Of a stretch of DNA of 64,000 nt, positions 6,488 through 64,000 are shown one piece after another. The stretch lies in assembly GCF_030161595.1 (NCBI RefSeq), contig NZ_BSUM01000001.1, positions 1,922,001 through 1,986,000 on the forward strand, given 5' to 3'. This DNA comes from Litorihabitans aurantiacus (GTDB lineage Bacteria > Actinomycetota > Actinomycetes > Actinomycetales > Beutenbergiaceae). The position numbers were made by a program, and so were the translations under genes. Under the pieces are notes generated by a model. That model was not told where the DNA came from and did not search any database. It was given only the letters and a program-made list of their open reading frames with translations. Each line of letters begins with the position of its first letter. The stretch's first letter is position 1.

Positions 6488-7839
6488 ATGACCCGAGGCC
6501 AGCCAGCCCTGCTGCGCCCCGCCCCGCCTCGGGGCGCGGGCTCCCTCAGCCGCCGCAGCCTGCTCGGACTCGCGCTGGCGGGAGCCGGCACGCTCGCCGT
6601 CGCCGGCTGCTCGCCCGGCGGCGGCGGCACCGGTGGCCGCACGCCGGTCCGCATCTGGGACCTGTTCCAGGGCGCCGACGGCGCTCGCATGCAGTCGATG
6701 CAGGCCGACGCGATGGCCGCGGAGCCCGACGTCGCCATCGAGAGCGTGACCCTCGCGTGGGGTTCGGCGTACTACACCAAGCTGGCGATGGCCTCGGCCG
6801 GCGGGCGGGCGCCGGAGGCCGCCGCCATGCACCTCTCGCGGCTCGCGGGCTACGCCCCGGGGGTCTGCTGGAGCCGTTCGACCTCGACCGCCTCGCCGAC
6901 CTGGGCATCACCGAGGCCGACTTCACGCCCGCCGTCTGGGAGCGCGCCACCTACCGGGACCAGCTCTACGCCCTCCCCTTCGACACCCACCCGTTCATCA
7001 CGTTCTACGACCCGGCGATCGCCGGTCCGGCGGGCATCCTCGACGCCGAGGGCGGGCTCAGCGGCATCACGAGCCCGGACACCTTCCTCGACGCCGGGCG
7101 GCGCCTCGCGGAGGTCACCGGCGGCACCGGGATGACCTTCGGCTACCTCCTCGACACGGCACAGACGTGGCGCCTGTTCTGGGGCCTGTACCACCAGGCC
7201 GGTGGCGGGTTCCGGCTCGAGCCCGGTCGGCCCGCCGAGCTCGACGAGGCCCGGGCGGGCGAGGTCGTGGAGTTCATGCAGGCCGTGACCGACGGCACCG
7301 TCGCCGGTCGCGACGTCGACTACTTCGGCGCGATCGCCTCGTTCACGACCGGCCGCAGCGGCCTGATCGTCTCGGGCGAGTGGGAGCTGCCCTCCTTCCA
7401 GGAGGCGATCCCCGACGTCGCCGGCCGCCCGATGCCGACGATCTTCGGCACGCCGGCGAACTACGCCGACTCCCACGCCTTCGTCCTGCCGCGCCAGACC
7501 TCGCGCGACCCCGAGCGGGTGGACGCGACCTACCGCGCGCTCGCGCAGCTGGTGAAGGGTGCGCAGATCTGGGCCGAGGCGGGTCACATCCCCGCCTACC
7601 TCCCGACGACGCGCACGCCCGAGTACCAGGCCCTCACCCCGCAGCGCGACTACGCCGTCGCGAGCGAGAGCGTCGTGTTCGACCCGCCCGCGTGGTTCGT
7701 CGGTGCCGGCAGCGACTTCCAGGCCCGCATGAGCGACCCGCTCTCGGGCGCCCTGCAGGGCAATCGCGACGCGGCCTCGACCGTCACGACGATGCTGCGG
7801 GAGATGGACGTGTTCCTCTCGCAGCCGGTGCCGGCGTGA
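6488..7839 (+). CDS. Sugar ABC transporter substrate-binding lipoprotein, frame broken once
   Basis: About 450 residues of the family 1 extracellular solute-binding type. The N-terminus has twin arginines (SRRSLLGLALAG) and a lipobox ending in VAGC near residue 40, so it is probably a lipoprotein, perhaps Tat-exported. The frame shifts by one lost base in the G run near 6858 (after RLAGYAPG), after which GLLEPFDLDRLADLG resumes the family pattern. It is first gene of a binding protein-permease-permease operon and divergent from the LacI gene. GGAGG precedes the ATG. Its partner ATPase is not in the window and is probably a shared MsmK-type subunit encoded elsewhere. Confidence 0.88.
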
Positions 7840-7879
7840 TGCGCCCCGACCCCCACCCGTGCCCCGCGGAAGGACGACG

Positions 7880-9828: not shown

Positions 9829-12582
9829 ATGACCACGCAGACCCCGGGCGCCGCCGTGCCCGCCGCCGACCCGACCGATCACGACCACGGCCTGCTGGAC
9901 GCCGTCGTCGTCCCGGACCGGGTGGGCGTCGAGGGGCTCGAGGAGCGCTGGGCGCCGGCGTGGGACGCCGCGCAGCTGCACGCCTTCGACCGCACCGCGC
10001 CGCGCAGCGAGGTGTTCTCGATCGACACGCCTCCCCCGACGGCGTCGGGCAGCCTCCACATCGGCCACGTGTTCTCCTACACGCACACCGACGTCGTGGC
10101 CCGCTTCCAGCGCGCGCGCGGCAAGCACGTGTTCTACCCGATGGGGTGGGACGACAACGGGCTGCCGACCGAGCGCCGCGTCCAGAACTACTACGGCGTG
10201 CGGTGCGACCCGTCGCTGCCCTACGAGGGCGACGACTTCGCGCCCCCGCACCACGGCGGCGCGACCAGCGTGAAGGCCGCCGACCAGGTGCCGGTCTCGC
10301 GCCGCACCTTCGTGCGCCTGTGCGAGCAGCTGACGGCGGAGGACGAGAAGCAGTTCGAGGCGCTGTGGCGTCACCTCGGGCTGTCGGTGGACTGGAACCA
10401 CCAGTACCAGACCATCGGGTCGACGGCGCGGGCCGTGGCGCAGACGACGTTCCTGCGCAACCTCGCGCGGGGCGAGGCCTACCAGGCCGAGGCGCCCGGG
10501 CTGTGGGACGTGACGTTCCAGACCGCCGTGGCGCAGGCCGAGCTCGAGGCGCGCGACTACCCGGGCCACTACCACTCGCTCGCGTTCCACGGGACGGACG
10601 GCGGCGACGTCGTCATCGAGACCACCCGCCCCGAGCTGCTCGGTGCGTGCGTGGCGCTGATCGCGCACCCCGACGACGAGCGCTACCAGCACCTGTTCGG
10701 CACCACGGTGACCACGCCCGTGTTCGGCGTCGAGGTGCCCGTGCTCGCCCACCCGTCCGCCGAGGCGGACAAGGGCTCCGGCATCGCGATGTGCTGCACC
10801 TTCGGCGACCTGACCGACGTGCAGTGGTGGCGCGAGCTGGACCTGCCCACGCGCTCGATCGTGCAGCGCGACGGTCGGATCACGCGCGAGGTGCCCGAGT
10901 GGATCACGGCGGAGGCCGGCCGCGAGGCGTTCGCCGAGCTGCTCGGGAAGACGACGTTCTCGGCGCGCACCGCCGTCGTCGACGCCCTGCGTGCGAGCGG
11001 CGATCTGATCGGCGAGCCGACCGCGACGCAGCGCAAGGCGAACTTCTTCGAGAAGGGCGACAAGCCGCTCGAGATCGTGACCTCGCGCCAGTGGTACATC
11101 CGCAACGGCGGCCGCGAGGTGCCGGGCGGCCGCGATCTGCGGGCGGAGCTCCTCGCGCGCGGTGACGAGCTCGACTTCCACCCCGACTTCATGCGGGTGC
11201 GCTACCGCAACTGGGTCGGCGGCCTGAACGGCGACTGGCTCATCTCGCGCCAGCGCTTCTTCGGTGTGCCGATCCCGGTGTGGTATCCGGTCGACGAGGA
11301 CGGCGAGACGCGCTGGGACGCGCCGATCGTGCCCGAGGAGGCGCAGCTCCCGATCGACCCCAGCTCCGACGTGCCCGCCGGCTACACGGCCGAGCAGCGC
11401 GGCGCCGCGGGCGGCTTCGTGGGCGACACCGACGTGATGGACACCTGGGCGACCAGCTCGCTGACGCCGCAGATCGCGGGCGGCTGGCTGCACGACGCCG
11501 ACCTGTTCGAGCGCGTCTTCCCGATGGACGTGCGCCCGCAGGGGCAGGACATCATCCGCACCTGGCTGTTCTCGACCGTGGTCCGCAGCCACCTCGAGCA
11601 CGACGCCCTGCCGTGGAGGCACGCGGCCATCTCGGGGTGGATCCTCGACCCCGACCGCAAGAAGATGAGCAAGTCCAAGGGCAACGTGGTCACGCCCATG
11701 GACCTGCTCGTGGAGCACGGCTCCGACGCGGTGCGCTACTGGGCCGCCTCGGCGCGCCTGGGGACCGACGCCGCGTTCGAGGTCGGCCAGATGAAGATCG
11801 GTCGCCGCCTCGCGATCAAGGTGCTCAACGCGAGCAAGTTCGCGCTCACGGCCGCCTCGGGCGAGGGCAGCGCCGTCGTGCTCGACCCGGCCGCCGTGAC
11901 CGAGGCGATCGACCGGGCCCTGCTGGCCGACCTCGCGACCGTGGTCGAGCAGGCCACCGCGGCGTTCGAGGGCTTCGACCACGCCCGCGCGCTCGAGACC
12001 ACGGAGACGTTCTTCTGGACGTTCTGCGACGACTACCTCGAGCTGGTCAAGGACCGCGCCTACGGTCGCGGCCCGACCGGGGCCGACGGCGAGCCCGAGC
12101 CGCTCACGCCTGAGCAGATCGCCTCGGCGCGCGCCGCGCTCGCGCTCGCGCTCGACGTGCTGCTGCGCCTGTTCGCCCCGTTCCTGCCGTTCGCGACCGC
12201 CGAGGTGTGGTCGTGGTGGCGCGGCGGTTCGGTGCACAGCGCGCCGTGGCCGACGACGGACGCGCTGCGGGCGGCCTCCGCGGGCTCGCCCGGTGGGGCG
12301 AGCGAGGGGCTCGTGGCGACGGCGGGGGCCGCGCTCGGCGCCCTGCGCAAGGTCAAGAGCGAGGCGAAGGTCTCCCAGCGCACGCCGCTGCTGTCCGCGC
12401 GGATCCTTGCGTCGGCGGTCGCGGCCGAGCAGGTGGCCGCGGTCGAGGCCGACCTGCGCGCCGCCGGGAAGGTGACGGGTCCGCTCGAGGTCGAGGTGGG
12501 CGAGCCCGTGGGCGGCGACGGCGAGGCCGTGGCCGTCGTCGTGGCCGCGCACGAGCTCGGCGAGGCCCCGCCGAAGCGCTGA
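9829..12582 (+). CDS. valS: Valyl-tRNA synthetase
   Basis: A 917-residue class I synthetase that charges tRNA-Val. The HIGH motif is in SGSLHIGHVFSYTH (near residue 73) and the KMSKS motif is in KKMSKSKGN (near residue 613). The CP1 editing domain (VVIETTRPELLGACVALIAH) is intact. The C-terminus carries an anticodon-binding domain and ends without an obvious long coiled coil. The ATG at 9829 follows a GGGGGG stretch acting as ribosome site. A strong hairpin follows the stop by about eight bases. Confidence 0.97.
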   Translation: MTTQTPGAAVPAADPTDHDHGLLDAVVVPDRVGVEGLEERWAPAWDAAQLHAFDRTAPRSEVFSIDTPPPTASGSLHIGHVFSYTHTDVVARFQRARGKHVFYPMGWDDNGLPTERRVQNYYGVRCDPSLPYEGDDFAPPHHGGATSVKAADQVPVSRRTFVRLCEQLTAEDEKQFEALWRHLGLSVDWNHQYQTIGSTARAVAQTTFLRNLARGEAYQAEAPGLWDVTFQTAVAQAELEARDYPGHYHSLAFHGTDGGDVVIETTRPELLGACVALIAHPDDERYQHLFGTTVTTPVFGVEVPVLAHPSAEADKGSGIAMCCTFGDLTDVQWWRELDLPTRSIVQRDGRITREVPEWITAEAGREAFAELLGKTTFSARTAVVDALRASGDLIGEPTATQRKANFFEKGDKPLEIVTSRQWYIRNGGREVPGGRDLRAELLARGDELDFHPDFMRVRYRNWVGGLNGDWLISRQRFFGVPIPVWYPVDEDGETRWDAPIVPEEAQLPIDPSSDVPAGYTAEQRGAAGGFVGDTDVMDTWATSSLTPQIAGGWLHDADLFERVFPMDVRPQGQDIIRTWLFSTVVRSHLEHDALPWRHAAISGWILDPDRKKMSKSKGNVVTPMDLLVEHGSDAVRYWAASARLGTDAAFEVGQMKIGRRLAIKVLNASKFALTAASGEGSAVVLDPAAVTEAIDRALLADLATVVEQATAAFEGFDHARALETTETFFWTFCDDYLELVKDRAYGRGPTGADGEPEPLTPEQIASARAALALALDVLLRLFAPFLPFATAEVWSWWRGGSVHSAPWPTTDALRAASAGSPGGASEGLVATAGAALGALRKVKSEAKVSQRTPLLSARILASAVAAEQVAAVEADLRAAGKVTGPLEVEVGEPVGGDGEAVAVVVAAHELGEAPPKR

Positions 12583-16574: not shown

Positions 16575-17261
16575 TCAGCGGGCGGGCGCCACGACCTTCT
16601 TGCGGCTCTCGAGCACCTGGTCGACGATGCCGTACTCCAGCGCCATCGGGGCCGTGAGGATCTTGTCGCGCTCGATGTCCTTGCGAACCTGCTCGACGTC
16701 GCGGCCCGTGTGGGCGGCCAGGGTGTCCTCGAGCCACTCGCGCATGCGGATGATCTCGTTGGCCTGGATCTCGATGTCGGAGGCCTGGCCGTACCCGCCG
16801 CCGGACATCGCCGGCTGGTGGATCAGCACGCGCGCGTTCGGGAGCGCGAGGCGCTTGCCCGGCGATCCGGCGGCGAGCAGCACGGCCGCGGCGGAGGCCG
16901 CCTGGCCGAGGCAGACCGTCTGGATCTGGGGGCTGATGTACTGCATCGTGTCGTAGATCGCCGTGAGCGCGGTGAACGAGCCGCCGGGCGAGTTGATGTA
17001 CATCGTGATGAGACCGTCGGGGTCCAGGCTCTCGAGCACGAGGAGCTGGGCCATGACGTCGTCGGCCGACGCGTCGTCCACCTGCACGCCGAGGAAGATG
17101 ATGCGATCCTCGAACAGCTTGGTGTACGGGTCCTGGCGCTTGAAGCCGTAGGCGGTCCGCTCCTCGTACTGCGGGAGGATGTACCGCGAGTCTGGCGACG
17201 TCGGAGCGGCGCCGCCGAAGCCGGCGGGTGCGGTGAGGTGCGTGGATGGCATGAGGTTCAC
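16575..17261 (-). CDS. clpP2: ATP-dependent Clp protease proteolytic subunit ClpP2
   Basis: A 228-residue serine peptidase. The serine is in [14 protein letters not shown], the histidine in [12 protein letters not shown], and the aspartate follows in the C-terminal part. The stretch [20 protein letters not shown] is typical of the actinobacterial ClpP2 type. It pairs with ClpP1 in a mixed 14-mer. A GTG at 17261 with AGAG upstream is used here; the in-frame ATG at 17252 is an alternative. It lies 35 bases after clpP1. Confidence 0.96.
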
Positions 17262-17296
17262 GTTGCTCTCTCGAATCTCTCGAAGTCTCTGTGGTC

Positions 17297-17911
17297 TCAG
17301 TCGCTCGTCCCGCCGCCACCGGCGACGTTCGCTGCGCTCGTGACGACCTGGTCGATGAAGCCGTACTCGAGCGCCTCCTGCGCGGTGAACCAGCGGTCGC
17401 GGTCGGCGTCGGCGTTGACCTGCTCGGGGGTCTTGCCCGTCTGCTCCGCCGTCAGCTCGGCCATCACGCGCTTCATGTGGAGGATCAGCTCCGCGTTGAT
17501 CCGGATGTCGGTGGCCGTGCCGCCGATGCCGCCCGAGGGCTGGTGCATCATGACGCGGGCGTGCGGCGTCGCGTAGCGCTTGCCCTTCGCCCCCGAAGCG
17601 AGGAGGAACTGGCCCATCGAGGCGGCCATGCCCATCGCGACCGTGGCGACGTCGGGCTTGATGAACTGCATCGTGTCGTAGATCGCCATACCGGCGGTCA
17701 CCGAACCACCGGGCGAGTTGATGTAGAGCCAGATGTCCTTGTCGGGGTCCTCGGCGGCCAGCAGGAGCATCTGGGCGCAGATCGCGTTCGCGTTGTCGTC
17801 GCGCACCTCCGACCCGAGCCAGATGATGCGCTCCTTGAGCAGACGGTTGTAGACGTGGTCACCCAGCCCGAAGCTCTTCGGGTCGGCCTGGGCCTGAGGC
17901 ATCTCGCTCAC
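17297..17911 (-). CDS. clpP1: ATP-dependent Clp protease proteolytic subunit ClpP1
   Basis: A 204-residue ClpP. The serine is in [14 protein letters not shown], the histidine in [14 protein letters not shown], and the aspartate in [19 protein letters not shown]. The GTG at 17911 is supported by AAGGAG six bases upstream. It is first gene of clpP1-clpP2, with a TANNNT promoter and a ClgR-like box upstream. In actinobacteria the P1/P2 pair is needed together for activity. Confidence 0.96.
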
Positions 17912-18122: not shown

Positions 18123-19718
18123 TCAGGCCTCGTCGGCCGCCTTCTCGGCGGCCTTCTTGGTCGTCTTCTTCGCGGGAGCCTTCTTCGCCGGCGCCTCGGC
18201 GGTCTCCTCCGTCTTCTTGGCGGGGGCCTTGCGGGCGCGCTTCGGCTTCTCGGCGGGAGCCTCCTCGGCGTCGGTCGCCTCGGCGGTCTTCGCGGGGGCC
18301 TTGCGCACGCGCTTCGGCTTCTCGGTCGGGGCCTCGTCGGTGGTCGCGGCCGCCTCGGCCGGCGCCTCCTCGGTGGCGACCTCGACGACCTCGGTGTCGC
18401 CACCGTCGGCCGACGCACCCTCGCCCGACGCGGCGGCGTCGAGCTCGTCCGAGCCGATGAACGGCGTGAGGTCGACGGCGTTGCCGTCGCCGTCGGTCAC
18501 GCTCACCTGGCGCAGCGCGAGCGCGAGCGACTTGTTGCGAGCCAGCTCGCCGACGAACACCGGGATCTGGCCGGTCTTGTCCGCGTTCTGCACGAACTCG
18601 TTGGGGTCGACGCGGTACTGCTGCGCCGTGCGGACGAGGAAGTCGATGAGCTCCTCCTGCGCGACGCGCACCTTGAGCTGCTCGGCGAGCACGTCGAGGA
18701 GCAGCTGGCGGCGCAGCGACTCGGTGGCCTCCACCTGCACCTCGGCGCGGTGCTCGTCGTCCTCGAGGCGACCCTCGCCCTCGAGGTGGCGGTGCACCTC
18801 GGCCTCGACGACGGCGGCCGGGACCGGGAAGTCGACCTGCGCGAGCAGCGCGTCGAGGAGCTTGTCGCGCGCCTGCACGGCCTGGCCGTCGACCTTGCCG
18901 GCCGCAGCCTGGGTGCGGACGTCGTCGGTCAGCTCCGCGAGGGTGTCGAACTCGCTCGCGAGCTGCGCGAAGTCGTCGTCGAGCTCGGGGAGCTCCTGCT
19001 CCTTCACGGCCGTGATCGTCACGCTGACCTCGGCCTGCTCACCCGCGCGCTCGCCGCCGGCCAGCGGCGCGGTGAAGGTCGTGGACTCGTCGGCCGAGAG
19101 GCCGGTGACGGCCTCGTCGAGGCCCTCGAGCATGTTGCCCGAACCGATCTGGTAGGAGACGCCGGAGACCGTGTCGACCTCCTCGCCGTCGATGGTGGCG
19201 TTCAGGTCGAGGACGACGAAGTCGCCGTCCTTCGCGGCGCGCTCGACGCCCGCGAGGGTGCCGAAGCGCTGGCGCATGACCTCGATGCGCTCGTCGACCT
19301 CGTCGTCGGAGACCTCGAGCGAGTCGACCTCGATGGCGAGGCCGGAGAGCTCGGGCAGCGCGATCTCGGGGCGGACGTCGACCTCGGCGGTGAACGCGAG
19401 CTCACCCTCCTTGGCGGACGTGGGGATCGTGGTGACCTCGACGTCGGGCTGCCCGAGCGGGGACAGGCCCGCCTCGGTCACGGCCTCGCGGTAGAAGCCG
19501 GGCAGCGCGTCGTTGACGGCGTGCTCGATGATCGGGCCGAAGCCGATGCGCTGCTCCAGGATGCGCGCGGGGACCTTGCCCTTGCGGAAGCCCGGGATCG
19601 AGACGTCCTTCGCGATGTGCTGGTAGGCGTGCTGGATGCTCGGGGTGAGCTCGTCGAGCGTCACCTCGACGGTCAGCTTCACGCGGGTGGGCTCGAGGGT
19701 CTCGACGGCGCTCTTCAC
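18123..19718 (-). CDS. tig: Trigger factor with long Lys/Ala/Pro/Glu tail
   Basis: A 531-residue ribosome-bound chaperone and peptidyl-prolyl isomerase. The ribosome-docking signature GFRKGKVPARI is near residue 45, the FKBP-type domain is at roughly 150-240, and helical arms follow. From about residue 445 there is a low-complexity tail with repeated EKPKRVRKAPAK/EKPKRARKAPAK blocks alternating with acidic Ala-rich blocks. The GTG at 19718 (VKSAVETL, the usual family start) is preferred over one nine bases upstream because GGAG is then ten bases away instead of one. A TAGGAT promoter-like box lies near 19824. Confidence 0.95.
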   Translation of the reverse strand: MKSAVETLEPTRVKLTVEVTLDELTPSIQHAYQHIAKDVSIPGFRKGKVPARILEQRIGFGPIIEHAVNDALPGFYREAVTEAGLSPLGQPDVEVTTIPTSAKEGELAFTAEVDVRPEIALPELSGLAIEVDSLEVSDDEVDERIEVMRQRFGTLAGVERAAKDGDFVVLDLNATIDGEEVDTVSGVSYQIGSGNMLEGLDEAVTGLSADESTTFTAPLAGGERAGEQAEVSVTITAVKEQELPELDDDFAQLASEFDTLAELTDDVRTQAAAGKVDGQAVQARDKLLDALLAQVDFPVPAAVVEAEVHRHLEGEGRLEDDEHRAEVQVEATESLRRQLLLDVLAEQLKVRVAQEELIDFLVRTAQQYRVDPNEFVQNADKTGQIPVFVGELARNKSLALALRQVSVTDGDGNAVDLTPFIGSDELDAAASGEGASADGGDTEVVEVATEEAPAEAAATTDEAPTEKPKRVRKAPAKTAEATDAEEAPAEKPKRARKAPAKKTEETAEAPAKKAPAKKTTKKAAEKAADEA

Positions 19719-57583: not shown

Positions 57584-59560
57584 GTGCGTCTGCGATCCGG
57601 GCCCGTGCGCGCCGCGGCGCTGCTCGCGCTCGCGTTCGTCCTGCTCCGCCTCCTCTACCAGGGCCTGTTCCGCGGCCTCGACCGCGGCGGCGTCGTGCTG
57701 GCCGACCTGCCCTCGTGGCGACTGCCCCACCCGATCGACCACGTCGTCCTGCTCGGTCCGGTCACGAGCCAGGGCATCCAGGCGGCGATCGTCAGCGCGC
57801 TGCCCGTCGCCGGGATCATCCTGGGATTCGGGGTCCTGAACGCCGTCGTCGACCTCTCCGCGGCGTGCGCCCGCGCCAGCCGGGGCGGCCCCCTGCGGTC
57901 CGTGGCGCAGGCGCTCGTCATCGCCTGGGCGACCTTCCCCGGGCTCGTCGGCAGCGTCACGGACGTGCGGCGCGCGCGCCGACTGCGGGGCGAGCGCGGG
58001 GCCGCGTCGCTGCTCGTGCCCGTGATGGAGCGGACGGTCGAGCGCGCCGTCGCCCTCGGGGCCTCGATGGAGGTGCGCGGGTTCGCGTCGGTCCGGTCGA
58101 GCAGCGGGGTCGCGTCGCCCCACCCTTCACCCGCCGTCCACCTCCACGGCGTCACCCTCGGGCACGACGACGCCTGGCACCTCCGCGCCGACCTCACCCT
58201 CGCGCGCGGCGGGCTCGTGCTCCTGACCGGGCCGACCGGGGGCGGGAAGTCCACGCTGCTGCGGGCGCTCAGCGGGCTGCACACCGCGGTCGACGGCGGA
58301 TCGCTCGCCGGCCGCGCGCACGTGCTCGGGCTCCCGCGCGACCTTCCGCCGCACGCGACGGCGTCGCTCGTCGGCGTCGTGGCGCAGCACCCGCGGCGCT
58401 CCTTCGTGGCCGAGACGGTGGCCGCCGAGATCGCGTTCGCCTCGGCGGTGCAGGGCGCCGACGACGCCGAGGTCGCGGCGCGGGTCGCTCGCGCCGCGAC
58501 GGGCCTGGGCATCACCGACCTGCTCGGGGCGGCGTGCGCGCACCTGTCCGCCGGCCAGTCCCACCTCGTCGCGATCGCGGCCGCCGTGGCGCACGACCCG
58601 GTGCTGCTGCTCGTGGACGAGCCGCTCGCCGACCTCGACCTCGCCTCCCGCACGCGGGTGGTCGCGGCGCTGCGCGACCTCGCGGCGGGCGGGACGACCG
58701 TGGTCGTCGCCGAGCACCGCACGGACGCGCTGCGCGAGGTCGCCGACGTCGTGCTGCGGGTCGAGGAGGGCGACGGCGGAGCGCGGGTCGTGCGCGAGGG
58801 CGCCGGCGGGGCGCCTGCGGACGCCCCGTCACCCCCCGCACCATCAACAACCCCGGCACCGCGCTCCCCCACCACCCACCCGCTGGTGCTCCACGTGGCG
58901 GACCTGACGCTCGCCGTCGGCGGCCGGACCCTGCTGACAGGCGGCGCGCTCGACGTCGCCGCGGGCGAGATCGTGGCCGTCGGCGGCGACGTCGGCTCGG
59001 GCAAGACGACGCTGCTGAACCGGCTCGCGCTGTCGGGCCGCGCGACCCCGGGCACGATCGAGGTGGGCGGCGTCGCGGTGGCGGCGCTCCGCCGTCGGGC
59101 GCGGCTGCGGGCCCTCGCGCTGGTGCCGGACGCCTCCGACGACCTGCTGTTCCGCCTGACCGTGGCGGAGGAGTGTGCGCGTGCCGATCGCCGGGCGGGG
59201 GCCGACGGCGGAGCCACGCTGACGAGGTTCCTCGCCTTCGCGGGGGTCGCGCCCGGTGTGGCCGACCGCCACCCGCGCGACCTCTCGGTCGGTCAGCGGC
59301 GACTGCTGGTGCTCGCGGTCCAGCTCGCCGCCGCGCCCCGCGTGCTCGCCGTGGACGAGCCGAGCCGGGGGCTCGACCCGGTGGCCGCCGCGGCCGTGCG
59401 GGAGGCGCTGCGCGCGGCGGCGGAGGCCGGGGCCGCCGTCGTGATCGCGACGCACGACGCCGCCTTCCTCGACCTGGCCGACCGGGTGCTCGTGCTGGCC
59501 GACGGGCGGCTGGAGGCCGACGCCGGACGGGCGCGCCCCGAGGCCGAGGTGGCGCCGTGA
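57584..59560 (+). CDS. ECF transporter: fused EcfT and two ATPase domains
   Basis: 658 residues. Residues 1-175 carry membrane helices and end in ALGASMEVRGFA, close to the Ala-Arg-Gly coupling motif of EcfT. Two ABC domains follow. The first has Walker A GPTGGGKST and LSAGQSHLVAIAAAV with VDEPLADLD; the second has GGDVGSGKTT and LSVGQRRLLVLAVQL with VDEPSRGLD. A Pro/Ser/Thr linker joins them near residue 420. The three core subunits are thus one chain. The GTG start has only a weak ribosome site. The S component follows with a four-base overlap. Confidence 0.88.
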   Translation: MRLRSGPVRAAALLALAFVLLRLLYQGLFRGLDRGGVVLADLPSWRLPHPIDHVVLLGPVTSQGIQAAIVSALPVAGIILGFGVLNAVVDLSAACARASRGGPLRSVAQALVIAWATFPGLVGSVTDVRRARRLRGERGAASLLVPVMERTVERAVALGASMEVRGFASVRSSSGVASPHPSPAVHLHGVTLGHDDAWHLRADLTLARGGLVLLTGPTGGGKSTLLRALSGLHTAVDGGSLAGRAHVLGLPRDLPPHATASLVGVVAQHPRRSFVAETVAAEIAFASAVQGADDAEVAARVARAATGLGITDLLGAACAHLSAGQSHLVAIAAAVAHDPVLLLVDEPLADLDLASRTRVVAALRDLAAGGTTVVVAEHRTDALREVADVVLRVEEGDGGARVVREGAGGAPADAPSPPAPSTTPAPRSPTTHPLVLHVADLTLAVGGRTLLTGGALDVAAGEIVAVGGDVGSGKTTLLNRLALSGRATPGTIEVGGVAVAALRRRARLRALALVPDASDDLLFRLTVAEECARADRRAGADGGATLTRFLAFAGVAPGVADRHPRDLSVGQRRLLVLAVQLAAAPRVLAVDEPSRGLDPVAAAAVREALRAAAEAGAAVVIATHDAAFLDLADRVLVLADGRLEADAGRARPEAEVAP

Positions 59561-60417
59561 CGCACGTGCAGCGGGTGTGCATCGCCGTCGCGAACCTGGT
59601 CGCCGCGGCGGCGTTCGCGTGGCCGCTGCTCGTGCCTGCCCTGCCCTCGCAGGCGCAGGCCGCGGCGCCGTGGGCGGCGCTGGGACTGGTGCCGATCGCC
59701 GTCGTGCTGGTGCTGGTCGCGCTCGATGCGAGCATCCGGTCGGCGACGACGCTCGCGATGCTCGGCACGCTCACCGCCGTCGGCGCGGCGGTACGGATCG
59801 CGGGGACGGGTGTCGGCGGGCTCGAGGCGGTGTTCGTCGTGCTGATCCTCGCGGGGCGCGCCTACGGGGCGCGGTTCGGCTTCCTGCTGGGGGTGCTGGT
59901 CATCGCGCTGAGCTCGATCGCGTCGGGCTTCGGACCGTGGACGCCGTTCCAGATGGTCGCGTGCGCGTGGGTGGGCGCGGGGGCGGGACTGCTGCCGGGC
60001 GGGCGACGACGGCGCGGGTCACCGGGCGCGACGCGCTCACCCGGGCGCGGCCAGCGGTGGCGCGAGGTCGCGCTGCTGGCGACGTACGGGGCACTGGCCT
60101 CCTACGCCTTCGGCGCGGTGATGAACCTGTGGTTCTGGCCGTTCGCCGTCGGGCCGGACACCTCCATCAGCTACGCGCCCGGGGCGCCGCTCGCGACCAA
60201 CCTCGGCTCGTTCCTCAGCTACACCCTGGTGACGTCGACGCTGACGTGGGACACCGTGCGGGCGGTGACCAGCGTGGTGGGGCTCGTCGTGGCGGGGCCG
60301 GCGGTGCTCGCCGCGCTGCGACGGGTGCGGCTCGGCCCGGGGAGCACGAGGGAGCGCCGTCGTGCGACGGCGCCCCCTCGGTCGCATCACAGCTCCCAGA
60401 AGACACCCATCTCGTAG
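59557..60417 (+). CDS. ECF transporter substrate-binding (S) component
   Basis: 286 residues. About six membrane helices (VCIAVANLVAAAAFAWPLLV, LVPIAVVLVLVALD and later) and the loop FGPWTPFQMVACAWVGAGAGLLP, typical of this S-component group. A basic loop (GRRRRGSPGATRSPGRGQRW) separates helices 4 and 5. The vitamin carried is not shown; the adjacent DUF4430-like lipoprotein and the nearby metH fragment hint at a cobalamin link, which is only inference. The tail overlaps the convergent LGFP gene by 31 bases. Confidence 0.88.
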   Translation: MTHVQRVCIAVANLVAAAAFAWPLLVPALPSQAQAAAPWAALGLVPIAVVLVLVALDASIRSATTLAMLGTLTAVGAAVRIAGTGVGGLEAVFVVLILAGRAYGARFGFLLGVLVIALSSIASGFGPWTPFQMVACAWVGAGAGLLPGGRRRRGSPGATRSPGRGQRWREVALLATYGALASYAFGAVMNLWFWPFAVGPDTSISYAPGAPLATNLGSFLSYTLVTSTLTWDTVRAVTSVVGLVVAGPAVLAALRRVRLGPGSTRERRRATAPPRSHHSSQKTPIS

Positions 60418-61337
60418 CGCGTCCCCGCCGGTCCGATGTGGATCCGGCCGCGCTCGAACACCTGCGACCACGTGCGGGTCGTCGTGTCGAAGAACTCGTT
60501 GCCCTTCGGGTAACCGAGCGAACCAGTGCCTCCGCCGCGCGCCGCGTGCGCCTCGAGGAACCCGCCCTTGACCGCCCAGCCCACGAGCCCGGTGTCGCAG
60601 CCCCAGCATCCGAGGGACGTGTACATGATGCCCCGCTCGAACCGCTGGTAGGCGTGGTCCAGACCCTGGATCTGGAGATTCCCGACGGGGTAGCCGATGT
60701 CGCTGGTCCCGCCCCCTCGCTGGGTGTAGTCGAACCCGCCCCAGCGGGAGTCGACCGGGAACGCGCCGCGCGGGCTGACGTAGATCTGTCCGCCCAGGAA
60801 CGGCTGGTACCAGTAGCCCGACGCCTGACGCACCTCGTTGCCGAGCGGGTAGCCGAGGGCTCCGGTGCCGCCGCCCGTGGCCGCGTGCACCGACCGGAAG
60901 GGGCTGGTGCCGCCTCGGACGACGGACGTGTTGACCACGGGGGTCCCGTCGGTCCGCTCCGCGTCGAGGCCGTAGATGACACCGCGCTCGAACTGCTGGT
61001 ACTGCCCGACCCCGGAGTATCCGGCGGTCTCGAACAAGAGCTGCTCGATGTCGTCGTACGTGCTCGTCGAGGTCGGGTAGCCGAGCACCCCTCGCCCACC
61101 GCCGAGCTGGAGGTGGGCGACGGAGAACGCCTTCTCGGGCGTCGCGGACGACCCCTGGACCGCGTGGGTGCCGAACGGGCTCGTGTACTGGTGCCCGTTC
61201 TCGATGACCCTCCAGCCGTAGCCGCTCGCATCCCAGGTGTAGGTGTCGGCCTGGGCGGCGGTGCCGAGGGATGCCGTCAGCGCGAGAGCGGCGACGGCGG
61301 TCGTGACGGTGCGCAGCGCGGAACGTGTGCGGCGCAT
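60387..61337 (-). CDS. Secreted LGFP-repeat protein 1
   Basis: 316 residues. The signal peptide RTVTTAVAALALTASLGTAAQA is cleaved after AQA. Then come a TYTWDASGYGWRVI opening and about five LGFP units of roughly 55 residues, each with GGGxGxLGYP, a YQxFERGxIY strand and an aromatic end. LGFP repeats are found in actinobacterial wall-associated proteins and are thought to bind the envelope. The start ATG shares a base with the stop of the upstream LGFP gene (TGATG), so the two are coupled. Confidence 0.88.
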   Translation of the reverse strand: MRRTRSALRTVTTAVAALALTASLGTAAQADTYTWDASGYGWRVIENGHQYTSPFGTHAVQGSSATPEKAFSVAHLQLGGGRGVLGYPTSTSTYDDIEQLLFETAGYSGVGQYQQFERGVIYGLDAERTDGTPVVNTSVVRGGTSPFRSVHAATGGGTGALGYPLGNEVRQASGYWYQPFLGGQIYVSPRGAFPVDSRWGGFDYTQRGGGTSDIGYPVGNLQIQGLDHAYQRFERGIMYTSLGCWGCDTGLVGWAVKGGFLEAHAARGGGTGSLGYPKGNEFFDTTTRTWSQVFERGRIHIGPAGTRYEMGVFWEL

Positions 61338-62325
61338 CAGGAGTCCACCGTCCGCAGCGCCTGACGGTCGCTCTGCAGCGCGAAGCCCTCGGTCCAGAAC
61401 TTCCCGGTGAAGTAGCGCGTCCCCCCGGGACCGATCTCGATGCGACCACGCTCGAAGACCTGGGTCCAGGTACGCGTCGAGGAGTTGTAGGTCTCGGCGG
61501 AACGCGGGTACCCCAGGGATCCGCTTCCGCCACCGCGAGCGGCGTGCGCGGAGATGAAGCCGCCCTTGACCGGCACGCCGATCGGCGGCAGGTCGCACGC
61601 GTAGCAGTCGGGCAGGGTGTAGAGGATTCCCCGCTCGAACCGCTGGTAGGCGTAGTGCGAACCCTGCACCACAAGATTGCCCGTCGGATAACCGATGGCG
61701 CTGCTTCCGCCGCCCATCTGGTTGTAGTCGTACCCGCCCCAGTACCAGTAGACCGGGAACGCCCCGGACGGGCTGACGTAGATGTCGCCGCTGAGGAACT
61801 CCTGGTACCAGTAGCCGGGGGCCTGCCTGACCTCGTTGCTGATGGGGTAGCTCAGGAATCCACCGCCTCCGCCGACCGAGTCGTGGACCGCCTTGAAAGG
61901 ACTCGAGCCACCCTTGACGACGAAGGTGCCCGAGGCGTCGACCTCGCCGTAGTAGTCGGTGACGCGCGAACCGTAGATCGCTCCACGCTCGAAGATCTGG
62001 TAGGCCCCGTCGAGGTCGTACCCGTAACCCTCGGCGATGTAGACCGATGTCGTCTGTCCGATCTGCGAGGACGTGGGGTACCCGACCGCCCCCGGCCGCC
62101 GCCCGCGGCGCGGTGGACCGCGGAGAAGGCGCGGGCCGGAGTCCCGTTCCCGCCCGTGACGGCGAAGGTTCCGCGTGGGCTGGTGTACTCGTGGCCGTCG
62201 GTGATTCCGCGCCACCCGTAGTTCGGACCGTCCCAGGTGTAGTTCTCTGCCTGGGCCGGAGCCCCGACGAAGAGCCCTGCGGCGAGTGCGAGGACGGCCG
62301 TGACCGCCACGCGAGTCGTTTTCAT
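61337..62325 (-). CDS. Secreted LGFP-repeat protein 2, frame broken once
   Basis: About 329 residues. Signal peptide TRVAVTAVLALAAGLFVGAPAQA, then NYTWDGPNYGWRGI and LGFP units ending RYFTGKFWTEGF. One base is missing near 62090 after AAGGGRG, where AVGYPTSSQIG resumes. It is a paralogue of LGFP protein 1, with the same TWD opening and final GPGGTRY block. The ATG at 62325 has GGGTGG upstream; an in-frame ATG at 62340 is possible. It is first of the coupled LGFP pair. Confidence 0.85.
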
Positions 62326-62570
62326 TTTCCACCCCGTCATAGATTTGGGCCGATGTTGACCCGGACTTCACGATAACTAAGGCGCGCGCTGGGCTGGTGG
62401 AGTGGAAAGGTCACAATTCGGACTCATCGGAGTCGAGATGGTTCAAGAGCCGCCAAGGTTCACCTGGGCGTCCGGCCATGTTGAGGCGCCAGTGGATGAA
62501 TTGACGCCGTTCGACATCGGACACCCCGGACCTCCGGGGTATCGCGGGCTCCCACAAGTGCCTCGCGGAG
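62326..62570. other. Gene-free segment of lower GC upstream of LGFP protein 2
   Basis: 245 bases with more A and T than the rest of the window (for example ACGATAACTAAGG). It holds the probable promoter of the LGFP pair. CCCCGGACCTCCGGGG near 62525 is a short hairpin. I see no supported gene and no recognisable insertion-sequence end. Confidence 0.5.
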
Positions 62571-62737
62571 CTAGACGGAGAAGTACTTCGCCTCGGGGTG
62601 GTGGAGCACGAACGCGTCGGTGGACTGCTCGGGGTGCAGCTGCAGCTCCACGCTCAGCTCGACGCCCAGCCGCTCCGGGCGCAGGAGCTCCACCACCTTG
62701 CGACGGTCCTCCATGTCCGGACACGCGGGGTCATCGC
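62571..62737 (-). pseudogene. metH: 3' fragment of cobalamin-dependent methionine synthase (metH)
   Basis: The last 55 or so codons of a MetH-type protein: DDPACPDMEDRRKVVELL, then VELQLHPEQSTDAF and the end HHPEAKYFSV with a TAG stop at 62571. These match the C-terminal reactivation domain of MetH. Upstream of about 62737 the sequence switches abruptly to a partial copy of the ECF S gene, so the rest of metH is absent. Confidence 0.8.
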
Positions 62738-62738
62738 C

Positions 62739-63239
62739 GTCGGGGCGGCCGTGCGGATCGCGGGGACGGGGGTCGGCGGGGTCGAGGCGGTGTCCGTCGT
62801 GCTGATCCTCGCGGGGCGCGCCTACGGGGCGCGGTTCGGCTTCCTGCTGGGGGTGCTGGTCATCGCGCTGAGCTCGATCGCATCGGGCTTCGGACCGTGG
62901 ACGCCGTTCCAGATGGTCGCGTGCGCGTGGGTCGGTGCGGTGATGAACCTGTGGTTCTGGCCGTTCGCCGTCGGGCCGGACACCTCCATCAGCTACGCGC
63001 CCGGGGCGCCGCTCGCGACCAACCTCGGCTCGTTCCTCAGCTACACCCTGGTGACGTCGACGCTGACGTGGGACACCGTGCGGGCGGTGACCAGCGTGGT
63101 GGGGCTCGTCGTGGCGGGGCCGGCGGTGCTCGCCGCGCTGCGACGGGTGCGGCTCGGCCCGGGGAGCACGAGGGAGCGCCGTCGTGCGACGGCGCCCCCT
63201 CGGTCGCATCACAGCTCCCAGAAGACACCCATCTCGTAG
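62739..63239 (+). pseudogene. Truncated ECF S-component copy
   Basis: It lacks the first quarter of the gene and the basic loop between helices 4 and 5 (WVGA joins directly to VMNLWFWPFAVG). The remainder, to the QKTPIS end, is identical in protein sequence to the full S component apart from a few residues at its 5' side. No start codon with a ribosome site is visible, so it is probably not expressed. Confidence 0.8.
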
Positions 63240-63512
63240 CGCGTCCCCGCCGGTCCGATGTGGATCCGGCCGCGCTCGAACACCTGCGACCACGTGCGGG
63301 TCGTCGTGTCGAAGAACTCGTTGCCCTTCGGGTAACCGAGCGAACCAGTGCCTCCGCCGCGCGCCGCGTGCGCCTCGAGGAAACCACCCCACCAGGAGTC
63401 GACCGGGAACGCGCCGCGCGGGCTGACGTAGATCTGTCCGCCCAGGAACGGCTGGAACCAGTAGCCCGACGCCTGACGCACCTCGTTGCCGAGCGGGTAG
63501 CCGAGGGCTCCG
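63209..63512 (-). pseudogene. Truncated LGFP-repeat copy
   Basis: The C-terminal part of LGFP protein 1 with one internal unit lost (VDSWWGGF joins FLEAHAARGGG). It ends in the same GVFWEL. Upstream of 63512 the sequence is unrelated to LGFP protein 1 (an AT-richer stretch to 63590), so no signal peptide or start remains. Confidence 0.8.
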
Positions 63513-63590
63513 CTACAGCTGGGGCGGCTGCGAACAGCCCCGCCAGAACTCACGCACTGAGTATTGCTCGCCGTTTCCGGCTCATCGGGC

Positions 63591-64000
63591 TTAACCCCAG
63601 AACTTGCCCATAACGTACCGGGTTCCGCCGGGACCGATCTCGATCCGACCACGCTCGAAGATCTGCGTCCACGTGCGGGTGCTCGAGTTGTAAGTCTCGT
63701 TCCATCGCGGATATCCGAGCGAGCCCGTGCCTCCACCCCGGGCGGCGTGAGCATCGATGAATCCGCCCCTGACCTCGATGCCTATCGGCGACGCGTCGCA
63801 CTCGTAGCAGGGCGGCACCGCGTACAGGATGCCTCGCTCGAACGTCTGGTACGCGTAGTGCGACCCCTGCTGGACGTGCCGCGCGGTCGGGTAGCCGAGC
63901 GGTCCGCTACCGCCACCCCTAGCCGTGTAGTTGAAACCGCCCCAGTTGTCGTAGACGGGGTAGGCGCCGCTCGGACTGACGTAGATGACGCCGAGCAGGA
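63591..64000 (-). CDS. LGFP-repeat protein 3, C-terminal part
   Basis: An open frame from the right edge to the TAA at 63591, 136 codons. It contains LGFP units (GGFNYTARGGGSGPLGYP, SHYAYQTFERGILYAVPPCYECD, AHAARGGGTGSLGYP) and ends IGPGGTRYVMGKFWG. It is closer to LGFP protein 2 than to protein 1 in its cysteine pair (CYECD versus CYACD). The 5' end with its signal peptide lies outside the window. Confidence 0.85.
   Translation of the reverse strand, partial: LLGVIYVSPSGAYPVYDNWGGFNYTARGGGSGPLGYPTARHVQQGSHYAYQTFERGILYAVPPCYECDASPIGIEVRGGFIDAHAARGGGTGSLGYPRWNETYNSSTRTWTQIFERGRIEIGPGGTRYVMGKFWG

What the first reader, a model, noticed from the sequence alone, without database searches (positions are those of the whole stretch)
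62571..63590. Mosaic junction: metH tail, shortened ECF S gene and shortened LGFP gene
A metH 3' fragment is joined at about 62737 to a partial copy of the locus 3 kb to the left. The copy has lost two in-frame blocks with short homologies at their ends, one being a single LGFP unit, and has a diverged 5' edge. This looks like repeat-driven recombination, or an assembly join of two strains' alleles.
Basis: partly seen in the sequence, partly recalled or inferred. Interest (0 to 1): 0.62.

Follow-up and report, generated by a model that had tools for sequence, protein, structure and literature searches.

The report
Second divergent gene island stacked beside metH
A bacterial chromosome carries two versions of the same small gene island side by side, the second one damaged and partly overwritten by the first; this is an ordinary kind of DNA recombination scar, although its sequence pattern suggests that the second version came from a related strain rather than from simple copying.

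Summary
The junction is real in the assembly. A 190-bp copy of the metH 3' end (62542-62731) is joined, with about one shared base, to a shortened copy of the ECF-S/LGFP locus 3 kb to the left. Full-length metH lies just beyond the window (window-equivalent 64818-68449), so the order is ECF-S, LGFP1, LGFP2, metH tail | ECF-S', LGFP1', LGFP3, metH. Convergent ECF-S/metH neighbours are old and widespread (67 of 80 relative loci); none of those 67 has a second metH end or ECF-S piece, and none of the 80 an LGFP3 match.

The copies differ as two formerly working alleles would: 10 of 13 coding differences are synonymous third-position changes (P 0.0016; 0.02 on a strict copy-lineage count). LGFP2 and LGFP3 are far older (dS 0.92) than their flanks (0.09-0.19). 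A 446-nt identical tract sits between about 95%-identical parts.

Best reading: a divergent version of the island was added in tandem by one homologous crossover plus one end-join, then partly homogenised by gene conversion and trimmed between short repeats. Rivals: an old in-situ tandem duplication; less likely an assembly chimera. ECF-S' and LGFP1' look like pseudogenes. Modest interest.

The parts
57584..59560 (+). ECF transporter double ATPase (A-A) gene, resident
   Evidence: Two ABC_tran stretches in Pfam; orthologous ORF in G001
59557..60417 (+). ECF-S gene, full length, the resident counterpart of the copy
   Evidence: PF12822 E 6e-6 and PF07155 E 3.7e-4, both below Pfam's curated cut-offs; orthologous ORF right after the ATPase ORF in G001
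60387..61337 (-). LGFP1, intact secreted-type LGFP-repeat gene
   Evidence: PF08310 E 1.4e-11; signal-peptide-like N terminus by eye
61337..62340 (-). LGFP2; its stop overlaps the LGFP1 start (TGATG); apparent single-base frameshift near 62090
   Evidence: PF08310 E 5.3e-10; frames; alignment to LGFP3
62542..62731 (-). metH 3'-end fragment (53 codons with the stop, plus 29 nt downstream), copy of the end of the metH beyond the window
   Evidence: 94.2% identity to L009 10789-10978; 94% and 91% to the G001 and G002 metH ends
62731..62732 (.). Join between metH fragment and ECF-S copy, about one shared base
   Evidence: Three-way comparison
62732..63239 (+). ECF-S' partial copy: 5' part lost, 138-bp in-frame internal deletion at about 62938
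   Evidence: no Pfam family at E 0.001 for the ORF 62598-63239
63209..63590 (-). LGFP1' pseudogene: LGFP1-like 3' part (to 63512) with a 174-bp (58-codon) deletion at about 63381, then an unrelated signal-peptide-like start with a TGA and a frame break
62937..63382 (.). 446-nt tract identical to the left copy, read as gene conversion
   Evidence: Longest mismatch-free run; reached in 14 of 200,000 random placements
63591..64000 (-). LGFP3 (3' part in the window; the gene runs to window-equivalent 64529), followed by full-length metH at window-equivalent 64818-68449
   Evidence: L009 9591-10529, PF08310 E 2e-8; metH domains in L009 10818-13241

Best explanation
The ancestral order, still common in relatives, is ECF-S convergent with metH. 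This genome acquired an LGFP gene island between them. Later a second, divergent version of the same stretch (interior of ECF-S', an LGFP gene, LGFP3, metH end) was added in tandem beside the first. The topology needs one homologous crossover (inside the metH end or ECF-S) and one end-join, which is the join at 62731. That is what homology-facilitated illegitimate recombination (HFIR) gives, and equally what circularisation of an incoming linear fragment followed by a single crossover gives. The new copy then exchanged sequence with the resident ECF-S/LGFP1 (gene conversion, 446-nt identical tract) and lost two in-frame blocks between short repeats. ECF-S' and LGFP1' are now leftovers without evident function; ECF-S, LGFP1, LGFP3 and metH remain whole or nearly so. 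Shown: anatomy, ancestral order in relatives, identical tract, synonymous bias, difference in divergence. Inferred: foreign origin, route of entry, order of events.
For: Full-length genes outside and fragments inside, as a tandem arrangement requires. In G001, G002 and G023 the ECF-S and metH matches lie 89, 128 and 72 bp apart without LGFP. In named relatives a metH end lies in 67 of 80 ECF-S loci, convergent in all 67, with one metH and one ECF-S match each; LGFP3 matches none of the 80 at E 1e-6. In 27 of the 67 more than 600 bp lie between the two matches, so the spot often takes up DNA. LGFP3 matches 1 of 24 family genomes, the own one, at E 0.001. Coding differences between copy and resident in the metH end and first ECF-S block: 13, of which 10 are third-position and synonymous, P 0.0016; with three more next to the joints 12 of 16, P 0.0008; counting only changes placed on the copy's lineage 7 of 10, P 0.02. 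dS LGFP2-LGFP3 0.92 against 0.145 (metH end), 0.094 (ECF-S block) and 0.188 (its first 25 codons). The resident ECF-S has its own changes at 62753, 62781 and 62933 where the copy keeps the relatives' state (my reading), so the copy was not made recently from today's resident gene. Identical tract of 446 nt, 14 of 200,000 random placements. Ku, an end-joining protein, is encoded here and in both congeners. Precedents in print for both routes.
Against: No second strain of this species was available, so no donor allele was seen. At all six coding differences of the metH fragment the resident metH agrees with G001, so the changes lie on the fragment's side (one of them, 62670, is shared with G002); taken alone that suits a released duplicate. 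LGFP1-LGFP1' shows 2.5 synonymous and 2.5 non-synonymous changes, no such bias. Numbers are small. LGFP genes may evolve fast, and the flanks may have been homogenised, which would weaken the argument from dS. Nearness of mismatches to joints (9 of 14 within 20 nt, P 4e-5) falls to 3 of 8 when differences within 15 nt of the two deletion joints are left out.
Confidence: 0.5

Rival explanations
1. In-situ origin: a tandem duplication of the stretch from inside ECF-S to inside the metH end (or a longer one containing whole genes, later cut down), followed by decay, LGFP divergence and gene conversion. No foreign DNA.
For: Gives the same gene order with no donor. LGFP1' sits next to LGFP3 as LGFP1 sits next to LGFP2. 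In the metH end the changes are on the fragment's side and none on the full gene's side. LGFP1-LGFP1' shows no synonymous bias.
Against: LGFP2-LGFP3 dS 0.92 against 0.09-0.19 in the flanks and the synonymous bias do not fit one recent duplication with a dead copy. They can be met if both copies were long functional, or if the flanks were converted too.
Confidence: 0.32
2. Assembly artefact: a chimeric read or contig joined two strains' versions of the locus.
For: The product would look similar. metH and LGFP2 each carry an apparent one-base deletion in a C/G-rich run relative to homologues, so the assembly probably has sequence errors; completeness is 95.28% against 99% for the congeners.
Against: The join has about one base of shared sequence, short for an assembler overlap. 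A 446-nt identical tract among diverged parts and the deletions in the copy need real events as well. In 40 other 20-kb stretches of this genome 5 held a direct repeat of 90 nt or more at 78% or more spaced over 150 nt, and by eye one of the five (L174) is a gene-tail duplication, so mixed-strain joins are not all over the assembly. This is a sample of about a fifth of the genome.
Confidence: 0.13
3. A working element: the copied gene ends serve as an integration site, or the fusion ORF is a functional protein.
For: A second LGFP gene in this genome also sits between a copied gene tail (dprA) and the full gene.
Against: Of the ORFs between the two metH ends, those taken to Pfam gave only LGFP or nothing, and none looks like an integrase by eye. 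ECF-S' has lost its start and an internal block. LGFP1' has a stop and a frame break (my reading).
Confidence: 0.05

Closest known systems
Homology-facilitated illegitimate recombination and single-crossover integration of circularised fragments (E. coli lacZ study, PMC3240628, passages read)
   Same: One homologous side and one end-joined side. In that study 56 of 60 clones expected to be HFIR gave a PCR product diagnostic of a duplication; 14 were sequenced, with duplications of 109-950 bp, ascribed to single crossover of a circular molecule.
   Different: There the events were selected in the laboratory; here only the product is seen. The 3-10 bp micro-homology it reports for most HFIR joins is not evident at 62731.
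Stacked effector-immunity modules in Vibrio cholerae T6SS clusters (PMC5361080, passages read)
   Same: New modules added beside old ones at the same locus, with a displaced gene 3' end among them, attributed to a process akin to HFIR.
   Different: Different genes (LGFP repeats, no toxin-immunity pairs), an actinobacterial setting judged by its relatives, one event, and gene conversion between the copies.
Ordinary tandem gene duplication with decay and gene conversion (general knowledge)
   Same: Same topology and the same kind of identical tracts.
   Different: Differences bear the mark of selection on both copies, and LGFP2/LGFP3 are much more diverged than the flanks.

Membership tests
HFIR / single-crossover additive integration | One side homologous, the other joined without long homology | tested here: met
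   The metH end is present in register on both sides; the join at 62731 has about one shared base
HFIR / single-crossover additive integration | 3-10 bp micro-homology at the illegitimate join (reported for most HFIR cases) | tested here: not met
   About 1 bp at 62731. So it is described as working like HFIR or like circle integration, and not filed as HFIR
HFIR / single-crossover additive integration | Donor DNA from another molecule or strain | tested here: inconclusive
   Synonymous bias and dS contrast point that way; no donor sequence seen
Simple recent tandem duplication in situ | All parts of the two units equally diverged | tested here: not met
   dS 0.92 for LGFP2-LGFP3 against 0.09-0.19 for the flanks and 0.035 for LGFP1-LGFP1'
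Gene conversion between repeats | Identical tract within otherwise diverged copies | tested here: met
   446-nt identical run, 14 of 200,000 random placements
Integrative element with duplicated attachment site | Integrase gene inside the element | tested here: not met
   ORFs between the two metH ends: the three taken to Pfam gave LGFP (two) or no family; none integrase-like by eye
LGFP-repeat protein (PF08310) | Match above Pfam's gathering score | tested here: met
   LGFP1, LGFP2, LGFP3 and the LGFP1' ORF: 45.0, 39.9, 34.9 and 36.7 bits against 22

The most novel reading that the evidence does not exclude
This lineage repeatedly builds islands of surface-type proteins by taking up linear fragments that are circularised by end-joining (Ku is encoded) and integrated by a single crossover near gene 3' ends. 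Each event would leave a gene-tail copy as a scar and keep the housekeeping gene whole. Three loci would be instances: ECF-S/metH, dprA with an LGFP gene, and an aminotransferase-like gene with its convergent neighbour.
Probability: 0.15. Interest if true: 0.5.

Novelty: new member of a known kind. Interest (0 to 1): 0.24.

Why it matters
If the stacked-allele reading is right, the locus is a record of exchange between strains: the copy keeps states that the resident gene has lost, the identical tract shows how far homogenisation went, and LGFP2/LGFP3 suggest that the slot beside metH, which holds inserts in 27 of 67 relative loci, varies between strains. A gene-tail scar at a second LGFP locus makes the route of entry of a lineage-specific protein family testable. 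As a single event it is ordinary genome plasticity.

Tried and rejected
Integrative element or prophage: rejected for the window locus (no integrase-like ORF between the repeats). Rfam scan of L009 5000-15000: 0 matches at gathering score. LGFP3 protein against plasmids and phages: no match at 1e-5 in either, so no mobile vector was found. LGFP3 in 396 genomes of the order (drawn evenly from a larger group): 3 with a match at 1e-10, the own genome and two weak ones at 36% and 32% identity; no source found. L174 against the two congeners: no counterpart longer than about 80 nt, so its ancestral state could not be judged. Direct-repeat census (90 nt or more, 78% or more, spaced over 150 nt): 5 of 40 stretches of G000 (800 kb) and 1 of 20 of G002 (400 kb). 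Looked at by eye: L174 a gene-tail duplication, L188 similar neighbouring genes and L191 an intergenic repeat, L177 an intergenic repeat, L173 inside long ORFs and taken as an internal repeat; L220 of G002 not resolved. Too few for a rate comparison. Mutagenesis at the joints as cause of the edge mismatches: not favoured, since the differences at 62753, 62781 and 62933 are on the resident gene's side. Left out of the 778-nt comparison: differences at 62734 and 63513, at the outer joins. Left out of the 13 coding differences: 62734 (non-synonymous), 62933 and 62936 (third positions), counted in afterwards, and the LGFP1' block (told under evidence against). Papers: gene conversion with partial duplication in bacterial genomes, 0 papers with all terms; a wider search seen as a listing only, mostly eukaryotic work; LGFP papers seen as listings.

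Full report
WHAT IS THERE. The window ends inside the locus, so I took the surrounding 20 kb of the same contig (L009 = C1:1976001-1996000; window position = L009 + 54000). From left to right: ECF A-A ATPase gene (57584-59560, +), ECF-S (59557-60417, +), LGFP1 (60387-61337, -), LGFP2 (61337-62340, -), a metH 3' fragment (62542-62731, -), a partial ECF-S' (from 62732, +), a partial LGFP1' (63209-63590, -), LGFP3 (63591-64529, -) and a full-length metH (64818-68449, -). The metH fragment is 94.2% identical over 190 nt to the end of that metH. ECF-S matches its Pfam models only below their curated cut-offs; its name rests also on its place after the ECF ATPase gene.

THE COPY. Three ungapped blocks relate the copy to the left locus: 62731-62940 (95.2%), 62932-63389 (99.3%) and 63380-63512 (96.2%), at offsets of 2960, 2822 and 2648 nt. 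The losses are thus 138 and 174 nt, both in frame; the second is a 58-codon LGFP unit. Short repeats stand at both: GGCGCGG (TCGGCGCGG if the left flank had the state of G001/G002) and GAACCCGCCC. The join metH|ECF-S' has about one shared base (my reading). From 63513 similarity to LGFP1 ends; on the minus strand the rest reads as a start codon and signal-peptide-like stretch with an in-frame TGA, in another frame than the LGFP part (my reading).

ANCESTRAL STATE. In the genus (3 genomes with the own) and family (24 with the own) the ECF-S match and the metH end lie 89, 128 and 72 bp apart in G001, G002 and G023, with no LGFP gene; for the other 20 the listing shows no such pair side by side, though several are drafts with the two matches on different contigs. 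Farther out, 80 loci around ECF-S relatives in named genomes, many of them Microbacteriaceae (the best 80 of 372 confirmed), give a clear picture: a metH end lies in 67 of 80, convergent with ECF-S in all 67; in 40 of the 67 the matches are less than 600 bp apart or overlap, in 27 more lies between (up to 7.5 kb). None of the 67 shows a second metH or ECF-S match, and LGFP3 matches none of the 80 (limit 1e-6 in both). So convergent ECF-S/metH is an old arrangement whose boundary often takes inserts, and the window's tandem is an exception. An LGFP3 protein search matches 1 of 24 family genomes at E 0.001, the own one, with 24 matched stretches in six regions of the chromosome, and 3 of 396 genomes of the order at 1e-10, two of them weakly.

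HOW THE COPIES DIFFER. In the metH end and the first ECF-S block there are 13 coding differences; 10 are third-position and all of these are synonymous (binomial P 0.0016 against one third). Adding three next to the joints gives 12 of 16 (P 0.0008). The resident gene is under selection in any case, so the stricter count takes only changes that G001/G002 place on the copy's side: 7 of 10, P 0.02. A copy that merely decayed after being cut off should not show this; the LGFP1' part does not show it (2.5 synonymous, 2.5 not). By my reading the resident ECF-S changed at 62753, 62781 and 62933, the copy at 62734, 62750, 62794, 62882 and 62936, and 62744 and 62771 are unclear. In the metH end the resident agrees with G001 at all six coding differences, and the fragment shares one (62670) with G002; this speaks against my reading if taken alone. 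LGFP2 and LGFP3 (233 codons behind the LGFP2 frame break) have dS 0.92 and dN 0.24, the flanks dS 0.145 (metH), 0.094 (ECF-S block) and 0.188 (its first 25 codons), LGFP1-LGFP1' 0.035. LGFP2 and LGFP3 thus separated well before the flanks, unless the flanks were later homogenised.

CONVERSION. From 62937 to 63382 there are 446 identical nucleotides; with 14 differences placed at random on the 778 compared positions, 14 of 200,000 trials gave so long a run. Differences lie near joints (9 of 14 within 20 nt, hypergeometric P 4e-5), but part of that rests on the two deletion joints: leaving out differences within 15 nt of them leaves 3 of 8 near a joint. The long identical tract does not depend on this. 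It is what exchange between the two copies would leave behind.

MECHANISM. Whole genes outside, fragments inside, one join without homology: this needs one homologous crossover and one end-join. Both routes are in print. HFIR joins one end by homology and the other illegitimately; in an E. coli study 56 of 60 clones expected to be HFIR were instead partial duplications of the target by PCR (14 sequenced, 109-950 bp), ascribed to a circular molecule integrating by single crossover, and the abstract says linear DNA is degraded or circularised by ligation (PMC3240628, passages). In Vibrio cholerae successive modules, one shifting back a gene's 3' end, were explained by a process akin to HFIR (PMC5361080, passages). 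Ku is encoded in this genome and both congeners; other end-joining genes were not sought. I favour an incoming divergent version of the locus (0.5) over an in-situ duplication (0.32) and an artefact (0.13).

ARTEFACT. No reads could be examined. For it: metH and LGFP2 each show an apparent one-base deletion in C/G-rich runs, and the assembly is 95.28% complete against 99% for its congeners. Against it: the join lacks overlap, and the identical tract and deletions need biological events too. In 40 further 20-kb stretches 5 contained a direct repeat of 90 nt or more at 78% or more spaced by over 150 nt.

RECURRENCE. Beside another LGFP gene (L130 8080-9108) a copy of the dprA end with downstream sequence (7681-7860) lies on the far side from the full dprA (10535-11731), 80.6% identical; an ORF with an rve domain lies between; in G001 and G002 the two flanking genes are 290 and 109 bp apart by their matches. 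In the sampled stretches L174 has the ends of a convergent pair on both sides of a 1.5-kb insert (17231-17406 and 18943-19123, 90.6%), the aminotransferase-like (by eye) copy with an internal loss. The other four LGFP regions (L126-L129) showed no copied flanking gene tail in self-comparison, though L129 has a tandem LGFP-plus-neighbour unit. Two of six LGFP regions and one other site are suggestive, not a demonstration.

VERDICT. A real, well-described mosaic in the assembly; most likely a recombination scar that stacked a divergent version of a lineage-specific LGFP island beside the first. The copied genes do nothing evident. Of the LGFP literature I saw the abstract of PMC2447325 (54-aa repeat in cell-surface proteins) and listings.

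Noticed in passing
L130:7681-10612 (C1:1834681-1837612): LGFP gene, a small lipoprotein-like ORF (by eye) and an rve-domain ORF between a copied dprA tail and the full dprA; in G001 and G002 the tyrosine recombinase gene and dprA are close together.
   Followed up: partly
L174:16525-19837 (C1:3006525-3009837): Ends of a convergent gene pair duplicated on both sides of a 1.5-kb insert; the aminotransferase-like tail copy has an internal deletion.
   Followed up: partly
window 62542-62570; L009 10761-10815; L128 12993-13047; L131 5444; L132 5570-5645; L028 7679-7712: Family of 21-bp tandem repeats around AAGTACCTCGCGG, some units decayed. The two-unit pattern occurs 14 times in G000, 2 in G001, 0 in G002, and 0 in the reversed-pattern control; units lie at the ECF-S/metH boundary in G000 and G001.
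   Followed up: partly
G000 C1: 641-651, 1100-1101, 1129-1130, 1598-1601, 1835 and 1982-1986 kb: LGFP genes are expanded in this genome (24 matched stretches) with no match in the other 23 family genomes searched; one group lies among nucleotide-sugar and ABC exporter-like genes (L126, by eye).
   Followed up: partly
L040-L119: Convergent ECF-S/metH neighbourhood in 67 of 80 ECF-S loci of named genomes, with inserts of 0.6-7.5 kb between them in 27; the inserts were not read.
   Followed up: partly
L009 about 13450 and window about 62090: Apparent one-base deletions in C/G-rich runs of metH and LGFP2 relative to homologues, probably sequencing errors.
   Followed up: yes
L177:12284-12919, L191:18812-19481: Another intergenic repeat built on CTCACAGCGGCTG-type units, seen in two of 40 sampled stretches.
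   Followed up: no
L129:12032-13156: ORF that looks by eye like a tyrosine recombinase, next to two tandem LGFP-plus-neighbour units; not searched against any library.
   Followed up: no
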